Assembly: GCA_016932075.1 (NCBI GenBank)
Contig: JAFGDP010000023.1
Span: 1-64,000 of the forward strand
DNA length: 64,000 nt
Direction: 5' to 3'
Source of the DNA: Chitinispirillaceae bacterium
Lineage (GTDB): Bacteria; Fibrobacterota; Chitinivibrionia; Chitinivibrionales; Chitinispirillaceae
Below the pieces are notes generated by a model, which saw only the letters and a program-made list of their open reading frames with translations, was not told the origin of the DNA and made no database searches. Positions 51,005 to 63,924 of the stretch are shown one piece after another. Numbering within the stretch: position 1 is the stretch's first letter; each line of letters opens with the position of its first letter. The position numbers were made by a program, and so were the translations under genes.

Positions 51005-52069
51005 TCACGTTGCCGGCATAAAAACAAATGGATACGTCACCGTCACATCACCCTCAGAGATTGATTCAAACCGCCACATCCGTATCTTACGCTTAATTTC
51101 ACTCTCGAGATCACTGCTGCCGGTCGTATTCTCAAGAATGGTAATCGCCGTAACGGCCCCGGACGCGGCGATGGTGAACCGCACGGTAACCTTTCCCGCA
51201 AGAGACGGATCACGCTTCAGGTATTTTTCATAGCTCATGCGGATACTGGTCTTGTGCGACGCGACCACCGCATTGATCGCCATATTATCGCGTTTCGCAT
51301 TCGATGATGCTGCACCGTCAATCGATTCGGGCTTCTGAATAACGAACTGCCCGCGTTTCTCCAGATCAACCGACTTTGCCGAACCTATGCTTGCGACAAG
51401 ATCGTCGATCTCTTCCTTGTGCTGTATGGCAACATCCTTGCTTTTCACGAGTTTCTTCTGAAGCACCTCGACGTTGCTGACCTGTTTGAGGCCGGACATC
51501 TTGGCCAGTGCTTCATCGAGGCTTCCTCCCGACTCCGAGCGTGTTCCCATGGCTCCAAGCACGTCAACCACGGACGGTCCTTTTGCGGTCGCACCCACCC
51601 CGGTCAGCATGCCCAGAACGCCGACCGTACGCATCTTCTGTTCCACCCGGGCCGCCCGTTTCGCCACCGCTTTTCTGGCGCGTTCGCGTTCCGCAGCAGT
51701 AACCTTCGGAGCCTTTTCCCCCGGTATTTGCCGGTCTTTTTTCTCTTCTTTCTTCGGTATCTCTTTTTTCGCGGAGGAGGTTTCTTGTTGCACTGCCTTG
51801 GCCGGTGTTTTTGGAATCGGTTTTTCTATAATAAGCCTCGCAAACCGCTCCGGGACCATCTCGATGTCAACAATGCTCGTCGGCGGCACCTTGATCTGAT
51901 AAATGTACACCACAATGCCGACGTGAAAAAGAAGTGAAAAGAGCATGATGAAAAAGAAGCGGGGATCAAGGGTCTGGAACATCGACCCCCGTACCTGGCG
52001 GACGATCGCGGGTGATAATGCCACGGTCATGCGGGCGCCGCTGAAATCGCCGCCGGTTCCGTACGTCAT
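51005..52069 (-). CDS. TonB-like protein with AgmX/PglI C-terminal domain
   Basis: Inner-membrane-anchored periplasmic protein that should transduce force from the TolQR-like motor. One N-terminal span (about residues 38-58, FFFIMLFSLLFHVGIVVYIYQI), a Lys/Glu/Pro-rich stretch (about 80-145), a Gly-rich middle (VLGMLTGVGATAKGPSVVDVLGAMG) of the kind seen in AgmX proteins, and a C-terminal TonB-like domain (about 265-354: SIRMSYEKYLKRDPSLAGKV then VTVRFTIAASGAVT, ILENTTGSSDLE, RMWRFES). This order and the C-terminal motif match the AgmX/PglI family. It overlaps the ExbD stop (TGATG). No TonB-dependent receptor is present in the window, which argues against simple nutrient import. Confidence 0.85.
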   Translation of the reverse strand: MTYGTGGDFSGARMTVALSPAIVRQVRGSMFQTLDPRFFFIMLFSLLFHVGIVVYIYQIKVPPTSIVDIEMVPERFARLIIEKPIPKTPAKAVQQETSSAKKEIPKKEEKKDRQIPGEKAPKVTAAERERARKAVAKRAARVEQKMRTVGVLGMLTGVGATAKGPSVVDVLGAMGTRSESGGSLDEALAKMSGLKQVSNVEVLQKKLVKSKDVAIQHKEEIDDLVASIGSAKSVDLEKRGQFVIQKPESIDGAASSNAKRDNMAINAVVASHKTSIRMSYEKYLKRDPSLAGKVTVRFTIAASGAVTAITILENTTGSSDLESEIKRKIRMWRFESISEGDVTVTYPFVFMPAT

Positions 52070-52587
52070 CACGTCCCTTCTTTCTGGCGCACGACGAGCG
52101 AAAAGTTGTTATATCCCTGCTGACCGCAGGTGTACATAATCTTTTTTAGCAGACGGAAGCGGATCCGCTTGTCCCCCTGAATAATGACATTGCCGCTGAA
52201 TTTCGTCTTGGAAGAATAGATACTGATCTTTTCCGTGGCGATACGCCGCCGCTCAAGCCAGTCATGAAGCCCGGCAATGACCAGTTCGTCGCTGGCAAGT
52301 GCAGCGGGTACATTGGCTACAATCTTATCTTCCGCGAGAACATGCTTGTTGTTCACCTTGATCGTGAGCATGAGTTCAGGCTTTTTCTTGGCGGTTGATT
52401 CCGGAATGATGAGTCCCTGGGTATCAGTAATAATTTGGTTTTCTACGCTGAAACTCTTCAGCATAAAGAAGCAGAGCACGGTCATGATGTCGATGAGCGA
52501 CGTGATCTGCGGCTTGACCGCCTTGAGCCTCCGTTCCCCGCGCGCCTTTTTCGGCCGAATCGACGATTTTGATGCCGGATAGCTCAT
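52069..52587 (-). CDS. ExbD/TolR-type protein (with conserved membrane Asp)
   Basis: Second of two ExbD/TolR-like motor subunits in this operon. A positively charged N-terminus is followed by the single span in which VKPQITSLIDIMTVLCFFML keeps the proton-carrying Asp (PLIDV-type position). The periplasmic domain is longer than usual, with a stretch at about 100-172 that includes FRLLKKIMYTCGQQGYNNFSLVV, the ExbD C-terminal beta-strand pattern. It starts at an ATGA overlap with the STAS gene and ends at the TonB-like gene start. Confidence 0.9.
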   Translation of the reverse strand: MSYPASKSSIRPKKARGERRLKAVKPQITSLIDIMTVLCFFMLKSFSVENQIITDTQGLIIPESTAKKKPELMLTIKVNNKHVLAEDKIVANVPAALASDELVIAGLHDWLERRRIATEKISIYSSKTKFSGNVIIQGDKRIRFRLLKKIMYTCGQQGYNNFSLVVRQKEGT

Positions 52588-52910
52588 AGCTCCTCGACGG
52601 AATTAACGATTCGGAATACACGGTCGAGATTGGTGTTGCGAAGCATGTTCAAAATGAATCCACGGGGCGAAACAAACACCAAATCGCGGTGTTCATTCTC
52701 GAGGAGGCGCCAGGAGTAGACAAATGCGCCCAGGCCATGGCTGTCGATAAACGTGGTACGGGAAAGATCCACCGCGATCGTTTGGCCTGTTGATTTTCTC
52801 ATCCGCTCGAGACGGACGGCGATCTTGCCGACCTGGTCTCCGGTCAGCTCCCCGATGATCTCCAGTACCTGAATTTTCCCGTGCTTCTTGACATGGATTT
52901 TGATGCTCAT
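52584..52910 (-). CDS. STAS-domain protein lacking the usual phosphorylatable Ser
   Basis: 108-aa stand-alone STAS protein (SpoIIAA-like anti-anti-sigma fold) inserted between two ExbD/TolR-like genes. Start ATG 52910 overlaps the upstream stop by four bases. The typical FIDSSGLG loop reads FIDSHGLGAFVYSW: the second Ser, phosphorylated in SpoIIAA, is a His here, so Ser phosphorylation at that position is not possible. There is no anti-sigma kinase gene in the window. Possible roles are a scaffold or sensor on the motor complex. Confidence 0.88.
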   Translation of the reverse strand: MSIKIHVKKHGKIQVLEIIGELTGDQVGKIAVRLERMRKSTGQTIAVDLSRTTFIDSHGLGAFVYSWRLLENEHRDLVFVSPRGFILNMLRNTNLDRVFRIVNSVEEL

Positions 52911-62555: not shown

Positions 62556-62557
62556 TG

Positions 62558-63646
62558 CTATTCGATCTCTTCTAACAGCTGCTCAATCTCCTCCATTTTC
62601 TTTTCTATTTCTTTTCGCTTCTGAAGCTCCGCCTTTTCCTGCTCGGAATCAGGAAATTCCGACTCTATATGCAATGACTTGAATGCTTTGTCCAGTCCGC
62701 TTTCGACCCGTTTGCCCTGCTCAAAACTTGAGGTAATCTTATCTTTCTTTTCCGCCTTTTCCCTCTCCAAAAACACTAGCGTCCGTATCGCTTCGGTGTT
62801 GGTCTCCTTGTACAGCAGGGGAATCTCGCACCAAAATGATGCCCGAACATATGCTGCAGGCAGCGGACGGAGTTCTTTGAGCTTCTGGTATGCCATTACC
62901 CGGAAACTGCCCAGCAGGCTTATGATTCCGAAGAGACGGTATCGTACACCCGGCTCAAACCAAGCGATACGCTGGAAATAGGATGAATCACCCCTGAAAG
63001 AACCGCTTCTTTTTTCCTTGTAGAATCCTGCTCCAATGTCAATAAAATAGCTATGCCGGTACTGTTTCCATTCAAACCCGGACACGGCACCAATCTGCTC
63101 ATAGCGATGAAGCAACAAGGGTTCGTCGACAAACGAAACGGCGAAATAGGTTTTGAGTGGAATGGTCTTGAAAAAGGCAAGCCAGTCCAGATCAATGACT
63201 CCCGAAGGCAGCATGAACGGACTGTATTCCGGTTTGCCGCTCGCGGCTGATTCGCTTAACGTATCTGCGGTTGTGGAAAGGAAAAGATCCCCGCTGATCC
63301 CGATCCCAATAAACCGCAAACGGTCATTGCCCGGCGTGGTAAACTGAATATGGGCCTCAGAGGTACCCAGCCCTGCAAAGTTGGTGAAAGAGGTCGCGGC
63401 TTTCAGCTCAATAATATTTGAGACGCCGACATGCAGACCGACCGTTGGATCGATACGGGCTCCGCCGGGTCCATAATTGCCATACGTACCGGTGGCAACC
63501 GTAATATTGCCGTTGCCTATAACATTCGAGGCGTCAATGTTCATGGTGCCTTCGTTCCTTCCCCGCTTGACGGTTGATCCGGCCCAGACCGACACGCAGA
63601 GAATGCATATCATGGCTGCAAGCAATAAACGACAGCGGCTTCGCAT
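62558..63646 (-). CDS. Putative outer-membrane beta-barrel protein with charged C-terminal tail
   Basis: 362-aa exported protein. Signal peptide of about 22 residues (LLLAAMICILCVSVWAG), then glycine- and aromatic-rich strands (GNGNITVATGTYGNYGPGGA, VGLHVGVSNIIEL, RYRLFGIISLLGSFRV), consistent with a 12-16-strand barrel. The last about 85 residues are a charged helical tail (TEAIRTLVFLEREKAEKKDKI, KEIEKKMEEIEQLLEEIE) that would face the periplasm. ATG 63646 overlaps the MerR gene stop (TGATG). In Glt-type machines two or three outer-membrane barrels are encoded with the TPR scaffolds. Confidence 0.78.
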   Translation of the reverse strand: MRSRCRLLLAAMICILCVSVWAGSTVKRGRNEGTMNIDASNVIGNGNITVATGTYGNYGPGGARIDPTVGLHVGVSNIIELKAATSFTNFAGLGTSEAHIQFTTPGNDRLRFIGIGISGDLFLSTTADTLSESAASGKPEYSPFMLPSGVIDLDWLAFFKTIPLKTYFAVSFVDEPLLLHRYEQIGAVSGFEWKQYRHSYFIDIGAGFYKEKRSGSFRGDSSYFQRIAWFEPGVRYRLFGIISLLGSFRVMAYQKLKELRPLPAAYVRASFWCEIPLLYKETNTEAIRTLVFLEREKAEKKDKITSSFEQGKRVESGLDKAFKSLHIESEFPDSEQEKAELQKRKEIEKKMEEIEQLLEEIE

Positions 63647-63924
63647 CAACCCCGGCCTTCCCGTGAAACGATAAAATGCTCCTGTTGTCGGCCTTTCTGG
63701 ATAACCGGGATCAGGACGGTCTCGTTAAACCGTTTACCGTTTCGCCTCAACTGCTTCTTAAAACCGACAAGCGCAGAGAGGTCGGCTTCTGAAAAAAGCC
63801 TCCACCCATTGTAATTTCTCTGCTCCGAGATATGGAGCGCCGGATCCACCAGCCATCGCTTGAGCGTCGAAACGGAGATACGCAGCCGTCGAGCGACTTG
63901 GCCGGTTGTGTAGAACTTTGGCAT
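63646..63924 (-). CDS. MerR-type helix-turn-helix DNA-binding protein
   Basis: 92-aa DNA-binding protein with a MerR/excisionase-type winged helix: FYTTGQVARRLRISVSTLKRWLVDP then NGWRLFSEADLSALVGF. No effector-binding domain, only a basic tail (about 65-92). It heads the reverse-strand transcript of barrels, TPR proteins and motor and is the natural candidate for its regulator. Excellent ribosome site (AGGAGG, 8 nt before ATG). Confidence 0.9.
   Translation of the reverse strand: MPKFYTTGQVARRLRISVSTLKRWLVDPALHISEQRNYNGWRLFSEADLSALVGFKKQLRRNGKRFNETVLIPVIQKGRQQEHFIVSREGRG

What the first reader, a model, noticed from the sequence alone, without database searches (positions are those of the whole stretch)
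51005..63924. Agl-Glt-like trans-envelope machine: barrels, giant TPR proteins, TolQ/TolR motor and AgmX-type TonB in one operon
Seen: in one direction, a MerR-type regulator, two putative outer-membrane barrels, an exported TPR protein of about 1160 aa, a TPR lipoprotein of about 990 aa, a small exported protein, ExbB/TolQ, ExbD/TolR, STAS, ExbD/TolR and a TonB-like protein whose C-terminus matches AgmX/PglI. Known: in Myxococcus the AglRQS motor (one TolQ-like, two TolR-like) drives the Glt complex, which includes TPR periplasmic proteins, outer-membrane barrels and AgmX/GltJ; it powers gliding and spore-coat assembly. Inference: this is a related, force-transducing envelope machine in a non-myxobacterial lineage. 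The order, the STAS component and the two-barrel arrangement are not the known Glt layout, so it may be a distinct system.
Basis: partly seen in the sequence, partly recalled or inferred. Interest (0 to 1): 0.82.

Follow-up and report, generated by a model that had tools for sequence, protein, structure and literature searches.

The report
Envelope motor operon with capsule exporter
A conserved operon in Fibrobacterota encodes a relative of the motor complex that lets myxobacteria glide and coat their spores, joined in one gene row to a polysaccharide exporter, which suggests a motor that lays out a sugar polymer on the cell surface.

Summary
In detail: eleven same-strand genes at 51005-63924, as described. 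The genes in view keep their order in 17 of 17 Fibrobacterota loci, and Wza follows the TonB-like gene in 15 of 16. The Agl-Glt link holds. The ExbB/TolQ tree puts the motor in a 55-row Agl-type clade (100/99) without E. coli TolQ or ExbB. The TonB-like protein aligns with GltG (P 1e-30). The two TPR proteins match the two halves of GltD (P 3e-48, 4e-55): GltD is split here. The small protein is GltF-like through an intermediate set. Differences: TPR2 has a C-terminal GH2/GH78-like all-beta domain; the barrels show no detectable kinship to GltA/B-type barrels; the first TolR-like subunit has Asn at the proton-carrying Asp site in 18 of 18. Best reading: a motor-driven, Nfs-like machine that moves or lays down the polysaccharide exported by its own operon. 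A core complex in Fibrobacter has been known since 2011; my searches found no description of this variant.

The parts
63646..63924 (-). MerR-type HTH regulator, 92 aa
   Evidence: Pfam MerR_1 1.3e-6; found upstream of OMB1 in 11 of 11 window-type loci that reach that far
62558..63646 (-). OMB1: signal peptide, 12-strand outer-membrane barrel, C-terminal helical tail
   Evidence: AF2 pLDDT 82.6, 12 strands, helices 283-322 and 334-361; Foldseek top FapF, then NanC, OmpG among others
61269..62555 (-). OMB2: paralogue of OMB1, outer-membrane barrel candidate
   Evidence: hhalign OMB1-OMB2 P 3e-22; not modelled itself
57698..61186 (-). TPR1, 1162 aa exported; C-terminal part = N-terminal half of GltD; middle GltC-like TPRs (weak)
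   Evidence: hhalign to GltD N-half P 3.3e-48 versus 1.2e-12 for the C-half
54685..57696 (-). TPR2, lipoprotein 1003 aa; N-terminal part = C-terminal half of GltD; C-terminal GH2/GH78-like all-beta domain (about residues 800-970)
   Evidence: hhalign to GltD C-half P 3.8e-55 versus 6e-17 for the N-half; Bac_rhamnosid_N at E up to 1 in 9 of 16 members, best 2.6e-7, the window's own 0.0044; AF2 pLDDT 87, Foldseek GH2/GH78 hits
54356..54688 (-). GltF-like small exported protein, 110 aa
   Evidence: hhalign P 2.8e-7 to the Myxococcota M3 GltF set, itself P 2.8e-11 to GltF; direct comparison only P 0.01
53536..54171 (-). ExbB/TolQ/AglR-type motor subunit, 211 aa
   Evidence: Pfam MotA_ExbB 2.9e-26; Agl-type clade 100/99
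52907..53455 (-). ExbD1/TolR-type (first) subunit with Asn at the transmembrane Asp site
   Evidence: Pfam ExbD 3.4e-14; site N in 18 of 18 window-type rows
52584..52910 (-). STAS protein, 108 aa, DSHGLG motif
   Evidence: Pfam STAS 8.8e-14; 14 of 17 loci
52069..52587 (-). ExbD2/TolR-type (second) subunit with the Asp kept
   Evidence: Pfam ExbD 1.7e-13; site D in 18 of 18
51005..52072 (-). GltG-type TonB-like coupler, no FHA match, 355 aa
   Evidence: NF033768 96 bits (cut-off 40) and C-terminus of NF033760 GltG 99.7 bits (cut-off 650); hhalign GltG P 1.2e-30 over 297 columns
50024..50941 (-). Wza/OPX polysaccharide export protein
   Evidence: Poly_export 7e-13, SLBB 9e-20; next to TonB in 15 of 16 loci
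47854..50022 (-). Wzc/PCP co-polymerase with tyrosine-kinase-like domain
   Evidence: GNVR, AAA_31, weak Wzz
42007..47857 (-). methyltransferase, four glycosyltransferases and a hypothetical protein in the same row

Best explanation
An Agl-Glt/Nfs-family envelope machine dedicated to the polysaccharide made and exported by its own operon. Inferred working: an ExbB pentamer with an ExbD1/ExbD2 axle, in which only ExbD2 carries the protonatable Asp, turns on ion flow. The GltG-type protein couples it through the cell wall to GltF-like and TPR1/TPR2 proteins (a split GltD). The TPR2 sugar-binding-like domain and the two barrels hold or guide the polymer that Wza/Wzc brings to the surface, so that the motor moves or spreads it along the cell (coat, cyst wall or adhesive slime). 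Shown here: homology, architecture, conserved linkage. Inferred: motor function, cargo, direction of force.
For: Motor in the Agl clade, away from TolQ and TonB-ExbB. GltG, GltD and GltF kinship. Genes in view in the same order in 17 of 17 loci and Wza adjacent to TonB in 15 of 16, although a genome has only 3-8 Poly_export matches (11 genomes). In the divergent clade (6 of 6 loci L178-L183) and in L006 the motor and GltG-type gene stay next to Wza-Wzc although no barrel or TPR gene is beside them. Five of seven Myxococcota M3 clusters have an OPX gene about 2 kb after GltG; L171 ends 1.3 kb after GltG, L175 has none within 3.5 kb. GH2/GH78-like fold on TPR2. Precedent: Agl-Nfs moves the Exo polymer, exported by a Wza homologue, on M. 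xanthus spores (PMC3858216, passages).
Against: No experiment. G168 (L056/L211) has the machine without Wza in the next 7 kb. L006 has the motor, STAS, TonB, Wza and Wzc but no TPR2 or small protein in the 5.5 kb upstream of ExbB, and its genome (G005) gave no long TPR1 match (best E 2e-19). Barrels not detectably GltA/B-like. GltC kinship of TPR1 is not above TPR background. Such all-beta domains also occur as structural parts of glycosidases, so sugar binding is not proven. The passages that I read on Chitinispirillum alkaliphilum, which has the whole set, mention no gliding or capsule.
Confidence: 0.6

Rival explanations
1. A gliding machine: the complex makes focal adhesions and uses the exported polysaccharide as slime, so that cells crawl on chitin, cellulose or other surfaces.
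For: Agl-Glt homology; slime takes part in Myxococcus gliding (PMC3858216 passages); C. alkaliphilum cells attach to chitin (PMC4814513 passages).
Against: C. alkaliphilum is described as flagellated and the passages read mention no gliding; Luciano et al. [quoted passage not shown] Cytoplasmic gliding partners (GltI, AglZ, MglA) were not searched for here.
Confidence: 0.18
2. A TonB-like energiser of export itself: GltG pulls on the barrels or on the OPX protein to open them for polysaccharide or another cargo, without moving anything along the surface.
For: TonB-like tail, the FapF secretion barrel as best fold match of OMB1, Wza and Wzc in the row.
Against: In M. xanthus agl mutants slime and Exo are still detected at the surface (PMC3858216 passages); a TPR scaffold and GltF-like protein are retained, which export gating would not obviously need.
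Confidence: 0.15
3. An ordinary TonB-ExbBD or Tol-Pal system next to a capsule locus by chance.
For: Family-level matches to TolQ/ExbB/ExbD/TonB.
Against: Tree clade 100/99, two TolR-like subunits, GltD/GltG/GltF matches, conserved order; no TonB-dependent receptor, TolB or Pal match among the eleven genes.
Confidence: 0.02

Closest known systems
Agl-Nfs spore-coat machinery of Myxococcus xanthus (with Exo export)
   Same: Motor of one TolQ-like and two TolR-like proteins, GltD-, GltF- and GltG-type proteins, two paralogous barrels, and a partner polysaccharide exported by a Wza homologue
   Different: Here motor, transducer and exporter are in one operon; GltD is split; no gene of GltE size; no FHA match on the GltG-type protein; STAS and MerR genes; barrels not shown to be of the same family; Asn/Asp pair of TolR-like subunits
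Agl-Glt gliding machinery of Myxococcus xanthus
   Same: Homologous motor and transducer core
   Different: No gene of GltE or GltI size in the row (GltH, GltJ, GltK not searched for); AglQ and AglS are both said to have the conserved Asp (PMC9389320, passages); gliding not known for carriers of the window's type in what I read
Core complex (GltC, GltD, GltE, GltG, AglRQS) of Fibrobacter succinogenes and Gammaproteobacteria (Luciano et al. 2011)
   Same: Single-locus core with its own motor; same phylum; system B loci here (L063-L072) look like it
   Different: In the 16-20 kb read, system B has an intact ~1250-aa GltD-like gene and no STAS, OMB or Wza match; its motor forms a separate clade with system C (98/89)
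Myxococcota M3 clusters (L009, L170-L173, L175, L177; label mine)
   Same: GltD, AglR-Q-S and GltG in one row (GltC not seen in L177), Asn/Asp pair, OPX gene nearby in 5 of 7
   Different: Intact GltD, GltE in most, no STAS match, a coiled-coil protein upstream of GltC in place of the barrels in six

Membership tests
Agl-type motor (AglRQS-like) | One TolQ-like gene followed by two TolR-like genes | tested here: met
   (a STAS gene lies between the two TolR-like genes in 14 of 17)
Agl-type motor (AglRQS-like) | TolQ-like subunit groups with Agl-type, not with TolQ or ExbB | tested here: met
   55-row clade 100/99; E. coli TolQ and ExbB and 16 other reference rows outside. The myxobacterial rows were labelled by gene order; none was verified as M. 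xanthus AglR
Agl-type motor (AglRQS-like) | Transmembrane Asp in both TolR-like subunits (as published for AglQ and AglS) | tested here: not met
   first subunit N, second D, 18 of 18; other Agl-clade motors share this pattern, so it marks a subclass
Glt/Nfs transducer | GltD homologue | tested here: met
   split over two genes, P 3.3e-48 and 3.8e-55
Glt/Nfs transducer | GltG homologue with AgmX/PglI tail | tested here: met
   NF033768 above cut-off; hhalign P 1.2e-30; GltG equivalog cut-off 650 not reached (99.7 bits), no FHA match
Glt/Nfs transducer | GltF homologue | tested here: met
   only through an intermediate set: 2.8e-7 and 2.8e-11; direct comparison P 0.01
Glt/Nfs transducer | GltC homologue | tested here: inconclusive
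   TPR1 middle vs GltC 1.2e-11, vs GltD N-half 2.5e-10: within TPR background
Glt/Nfs transducer | GltE homologue | tested here: not met
   no separate GltE-sized gene; TPR2 vs GltE 2e-10, background level
Glt/Nfs transducer | GltA/GltB-type paired OM barrels | tested here: inconclusive
   paired paralogous barrels in the right place but no profile match to the barrel-like pair of L185-L187, P above 0.02, sets of three sequences; 12 strands modelled for OMB1
Gliding machinery | Gliding motility depends on it | not testable with these tools
   needs microscopy and mutants
TonB-ExbBD import | ExbB groups with ExbB; single ExbD; TonB-dependent receptor | tested here: not met

The most novel reading that the evidence does not exclude
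The ancestral job of Agl-Glt machines was to drive an exported glycan over the cell surface, and gliding is derived. This operon keeps motor, transducer and exporter together, and uses an asymmetric axle in which one of the two TolR-like subunits has lost the proton-carrying aspartate.
Probability: 0.3. Interest if true: 0.82.

Novelty: new variant of a known kind. Interest (0 to 1): 0.62.

Why it matters
What the Agl-Glt core does outside gliding and sporulating bacteria was left open in 2011. An operon that ties the core to one Wza/Wzc export pathway, also in a cultured species (Chitinispirillum alkaliphilum), names the likely cargo and makes the question testable. The Asn/Asp pair bears on how 5:2 rotary motors use two proton sites. 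The split GltD and the added domain show how the transducer can be re-cut.

Tried and rejected
TonB-ExbBD import and Tol-Pal: rejected by the tree. T9SS (a PorW/SprE model matches TPR2 at 1.8e-6): weaker than ybgF/BamD on the same protein, and no GldL/GldM match in the Pfam scan of the row. TPR2 = GltE by its lipobox: rejected, its score lies at TPR background while GltD's C-half is at 4e-55. OMB1/2 = GltA/B by sequence: not shown. Tail domain as a specific marker: dropped, 5-10 matches per genome at E 1e-3. NF033755 was tried as a GltA/B model but is CglE. Direct comparison of the small protein with GltF failed (P 0.008-0.01); the intermediate set was needed. Promoter and terminator scans gave no more than shuffles (15 vs 14.3; 21 vs 21.1). 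My first set of Myxococcota genes upstream of GltC (also run as mx_GltUp, no match) held spurious high-GC frames; I replaced it with L185-L187. L067 and L188 were fetched but not used in the counts.
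Full report
What is there. The eleven genes named in the finding lie on the minus strand at 51005-63924. Gaps are -4 to 184 bp, and the row continues with a Wza/OPX gene 63 bp after the TonB-like gene, then Wzc, a methyltransferase, four glycosyltransferases and a hypothetical gene, down to 42007. 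The seven nearest loci are Fibrobacterota MAGs labelled Chitinispirillaceae, Chitinispirillum, Chitinivibrionales, Fibrobacteres or Fibrobacter sp.

Conservation. TPR1 was searched in 167 genomes of the phylum: 155 have some match at E 1e-3 (TPR repeats are common), 26 have a match at E below 1e-50. Around those 26, OMB2 lies upstream in 22 and TPR2 downstream in 25; in the others the contig or the fetched locus ends. I read 17 loci of the window's type (L001-L007, L056-L062, L208-L210; several belong to the same 26 genomes): the genes in view keep one strand and one order in 17 of 17. MerR is found in 11 of 11 that reach it, STAS in 14 of 17 (absent L005, L057, L210). Wza directly follows TonB in 15 of the 16 whose sequence reaches past TonB; the exception is G168 (L056, and L211 with the next 7 kb). 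One of the 17 is partial in content: L006 has ExbB-ExbD1-STAS-ExbD2-TonB-Wza-Wzc, but the 5.5 kb upstream of ExbB hold opposite-strand genes and no match to the small protein, TPR2, TPR1 or the barrels, and its genome gave no long TPR1 match. L058 is C. alkaliphilum: its OMB1 equals protein P0090, named CHISP_0916. Eleven genomes carry 3-8 Poly_export matches each, so adjacency by chance is implausible.

A divergent clade has the system in two pieces. OMB1-OMB2-TPR1-TPR2 stand at one locus (L053, L054; L055 in part; OMB2-TPR1-TPR2 or parts of it in L043, L046, L047), and ExbB-ExbD1-ExbD2-TonB-Wza-Wzc on another contig in 6 of 6 genomes (G156-G161, L178-L183; no STAS match). The motor and coupler therefore stay with the polysaccharide exporter even when the outer part is unlinked. 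In G155 (L184) the best ExbB belongs to a side branch (A2) and the contig ends after ExbD2, so it is not counted.

Is the motor Agl-type? A maximum-likelihood tree of 73 ExbB/TolQ rows (222 columns) has a 55-row clade with support 100/99 that holds the window's ExbB, the Fibrobacterota systems A, A', A2, B and C, Myxococcota motors, one Bdellovibrionota and one Pseudomonadota row. It leaves out E. coli ExbB, E. coli TolQ and 16 further reference rows. The window's system with its divergent and side branches is one clade (22 rows, 100/99). The order of the main branches within the Agl clade is not resolved. Several reference rows have long branches.

Is the transducer Glt-type? Reference sets came from unnamed Myxococcota genomes found with the NCBIfam CglF model (203 of 282 genomes match at E 1e-3, 3 over cut-off; that CglF is GltF is recalled and fits the gene order) and read by gene order. 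The GltC position was confirmed by the GltC model (24 of 24 genomes match, one over the cut-off). GltD and GltE were taken by position. Profile-profile comparison gives: TonB to GltG P 1.2e-30 over 297 columns; TPR1 columns 737-end to the N-terminal half of GltD P 3.3e-48 (C-terminal half 1.2e-12); TPR2 columns 60-555 to the C-terminal half of GltD P 3.8e-55 (N-terminal half 6e-17). The same split is seen against the intact ~1250-aa GltD-like protein of Fibrobacterota system B (4.5e-49 and 2e-56; wrong halves 1.2e-14 and 1.2e-10). Comparisons of these stretches with GltC and GltE, the TPR background, reach 1e-6 to 1e-10 (1e-12 with full-length TPR2), so the GltC-like stretch of TPR1 (1.2e-11 to GltC, 4.8e-12 to its system B counterpart) is not conclusive. 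The TPR1 stretches 1-250 and 561-736 and the TPR2 stretch 761-end match nothing there. The small protein matches GltF only through the Myxococcota M3 set of five sequences (2.8e-7, then 2.8e-11; direct 0.01).

What is different. (a) TPR2 is a lipoprotein (a lipobox-like Cys, read by eye in the alignment of 14 members). Its C-terminal domain matches Pfam's Bac_rhamnosid_N in 9 of 16 members at E up to 1 (best 2.6e-7; the window's own 0.0044, below the curated cut-off). Its model (pLDDT 87) matches all-beta domains of GH2 and GH78 enzymes (best E 2e-6, query-normalised TM 0.23-0.42 in the 50 rows shown). (b) OMB1 models as signal peptide, 12-strand barrel and C-terminal helices (pLDDT 82.6; best match FapF). 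OMB1 and OMB2 are paralogues (P 3e-22), but neither matches the two barrel-like proteins of L185-L187 (P above 0.02). 185 proteins match the OMB1 profile among the 7995 best candidates scored; of the 120 listed, the 12 rows in which I could read an organism name are Fibrobacterota. (c) At the column of TolR Asp23 and ExbD Asp25, the first TolR-like subunit has Asn in 18 of 18 window-type rows (the window included), 6 of 6 A', 3 of 3 A2 and 7 of 7 M3; in system B it is N in 4, G in 3 and S in 1. The second subunit has Asp in all of these. Myxococcota motors away from such clusters have Asp in both (14 of 14 and 12 of 12 rows, some from tandem genes of one locus). The single Bdellovibrionota row has Asn in both. 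The published statement for AglQ and AglS is a conserved Asp in each (PMC9389320, passages). An asymmetric axle is an inference from sequence.

What is known. Luciano et al. 2011 (PMC3169522; outline, passages and sections 6, 7, 11, 12 read) found the core GltC, D, E, G, AglRQS in one locus in Gammaproteobacteria, Geobacter and Fibrobacter, of unknown function. PMC3858216 (2013; passages) reports that Agl drives Nfs and the Exo polymer on spores. PMC4488436 (2015; passages) describes gltB-gltA-gltC with paralogous barrels. C. alkaliphilum is described with a polar flagellum, attachment to chitin and lipid cysts; the passages that I read mention no gliding (PMC4814513). PMC4704652, PMC11700989 and PMC13104615 were seen in passages; the first has no occurrence of gliding, Agl or Glt. 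Searches of the open-licence library listed no paper on this operon or on the Asn/Asp pattern; subscription papers and supplements were not searched.

How it most likely works. Shown: family membership of motor and transducer, linkage to OPX/PCP genes, predicted fold of the TPR2 domain. Inferred: ion-driven rotation, transmission through the GltG-type protein to the GltF/TPR scaffold and the barrels, and handling of the exported polymer at the surface. In C. alkaliphilum a role in the cyst wall is a guess that would parallel the myxospore coat. I give 0.93 that this is an Agl-Glt/Nfs-family machine and about 0.6 that its cargo is the polysaccharide of its own operon.

Verdict. New variant of a known kind, interest 0.62.

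Noticed in passing
L009, L170, L171, L172, L173, L175, L177: Myxococcota clusters with GltC-D-E-F-AglR-Q-S-GltG in one row (M3; GltC not seen in L177); an OPX gene about 2 kb after GltG in five of seven, and an EpsL-like protein in L009. Possibly the myxobacterial counterpart of the window.
   Followed up: partly
L063, L064, L065, L068, L069, L072: System B: upstream of the TPR genes lies a protein with a repetitive, beta-helix-like N-terminus, calcium-type repeats in most, and an OmpA-like C-terminus (read by eye from the sequences), a possible peptidoglycan-linked component.
   Followed up: no
L066, L067: System C: ~1950-aa GltD-like protein, in L066 next to two ExbB-like genes and one ExbD.
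   Followed up: no
L006: Motor, STAS, TonB-like gene, Wza and Wzc without barrel or TPR genes beside them.
   Followed up: partly
G001-G007: The AgmX/PglI tail domain (NF033768) gives 5-10 matches per genome at E 1e-3; I did not assign the other copies.
   Followed up: no
L008:10409-11339: In the Bacteriovoracaceae locus both TolR-like subunits have Asn at the Asp site.
   Followed up: no
L163, L169, L176, L162: Tandem or divergent pairs of Agl-type ExbB genes in Myxococcota loci.
   Followed up: no
window 29484-41904: Downstream neighbours: sensor kinase and NtrC-type regulator, GGDEF protein, glycosyltransferase, formyltransferase, RNase HII, DUF1015, LPG-synthase TM protein, MoxR ATPase.
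   Followed up: no
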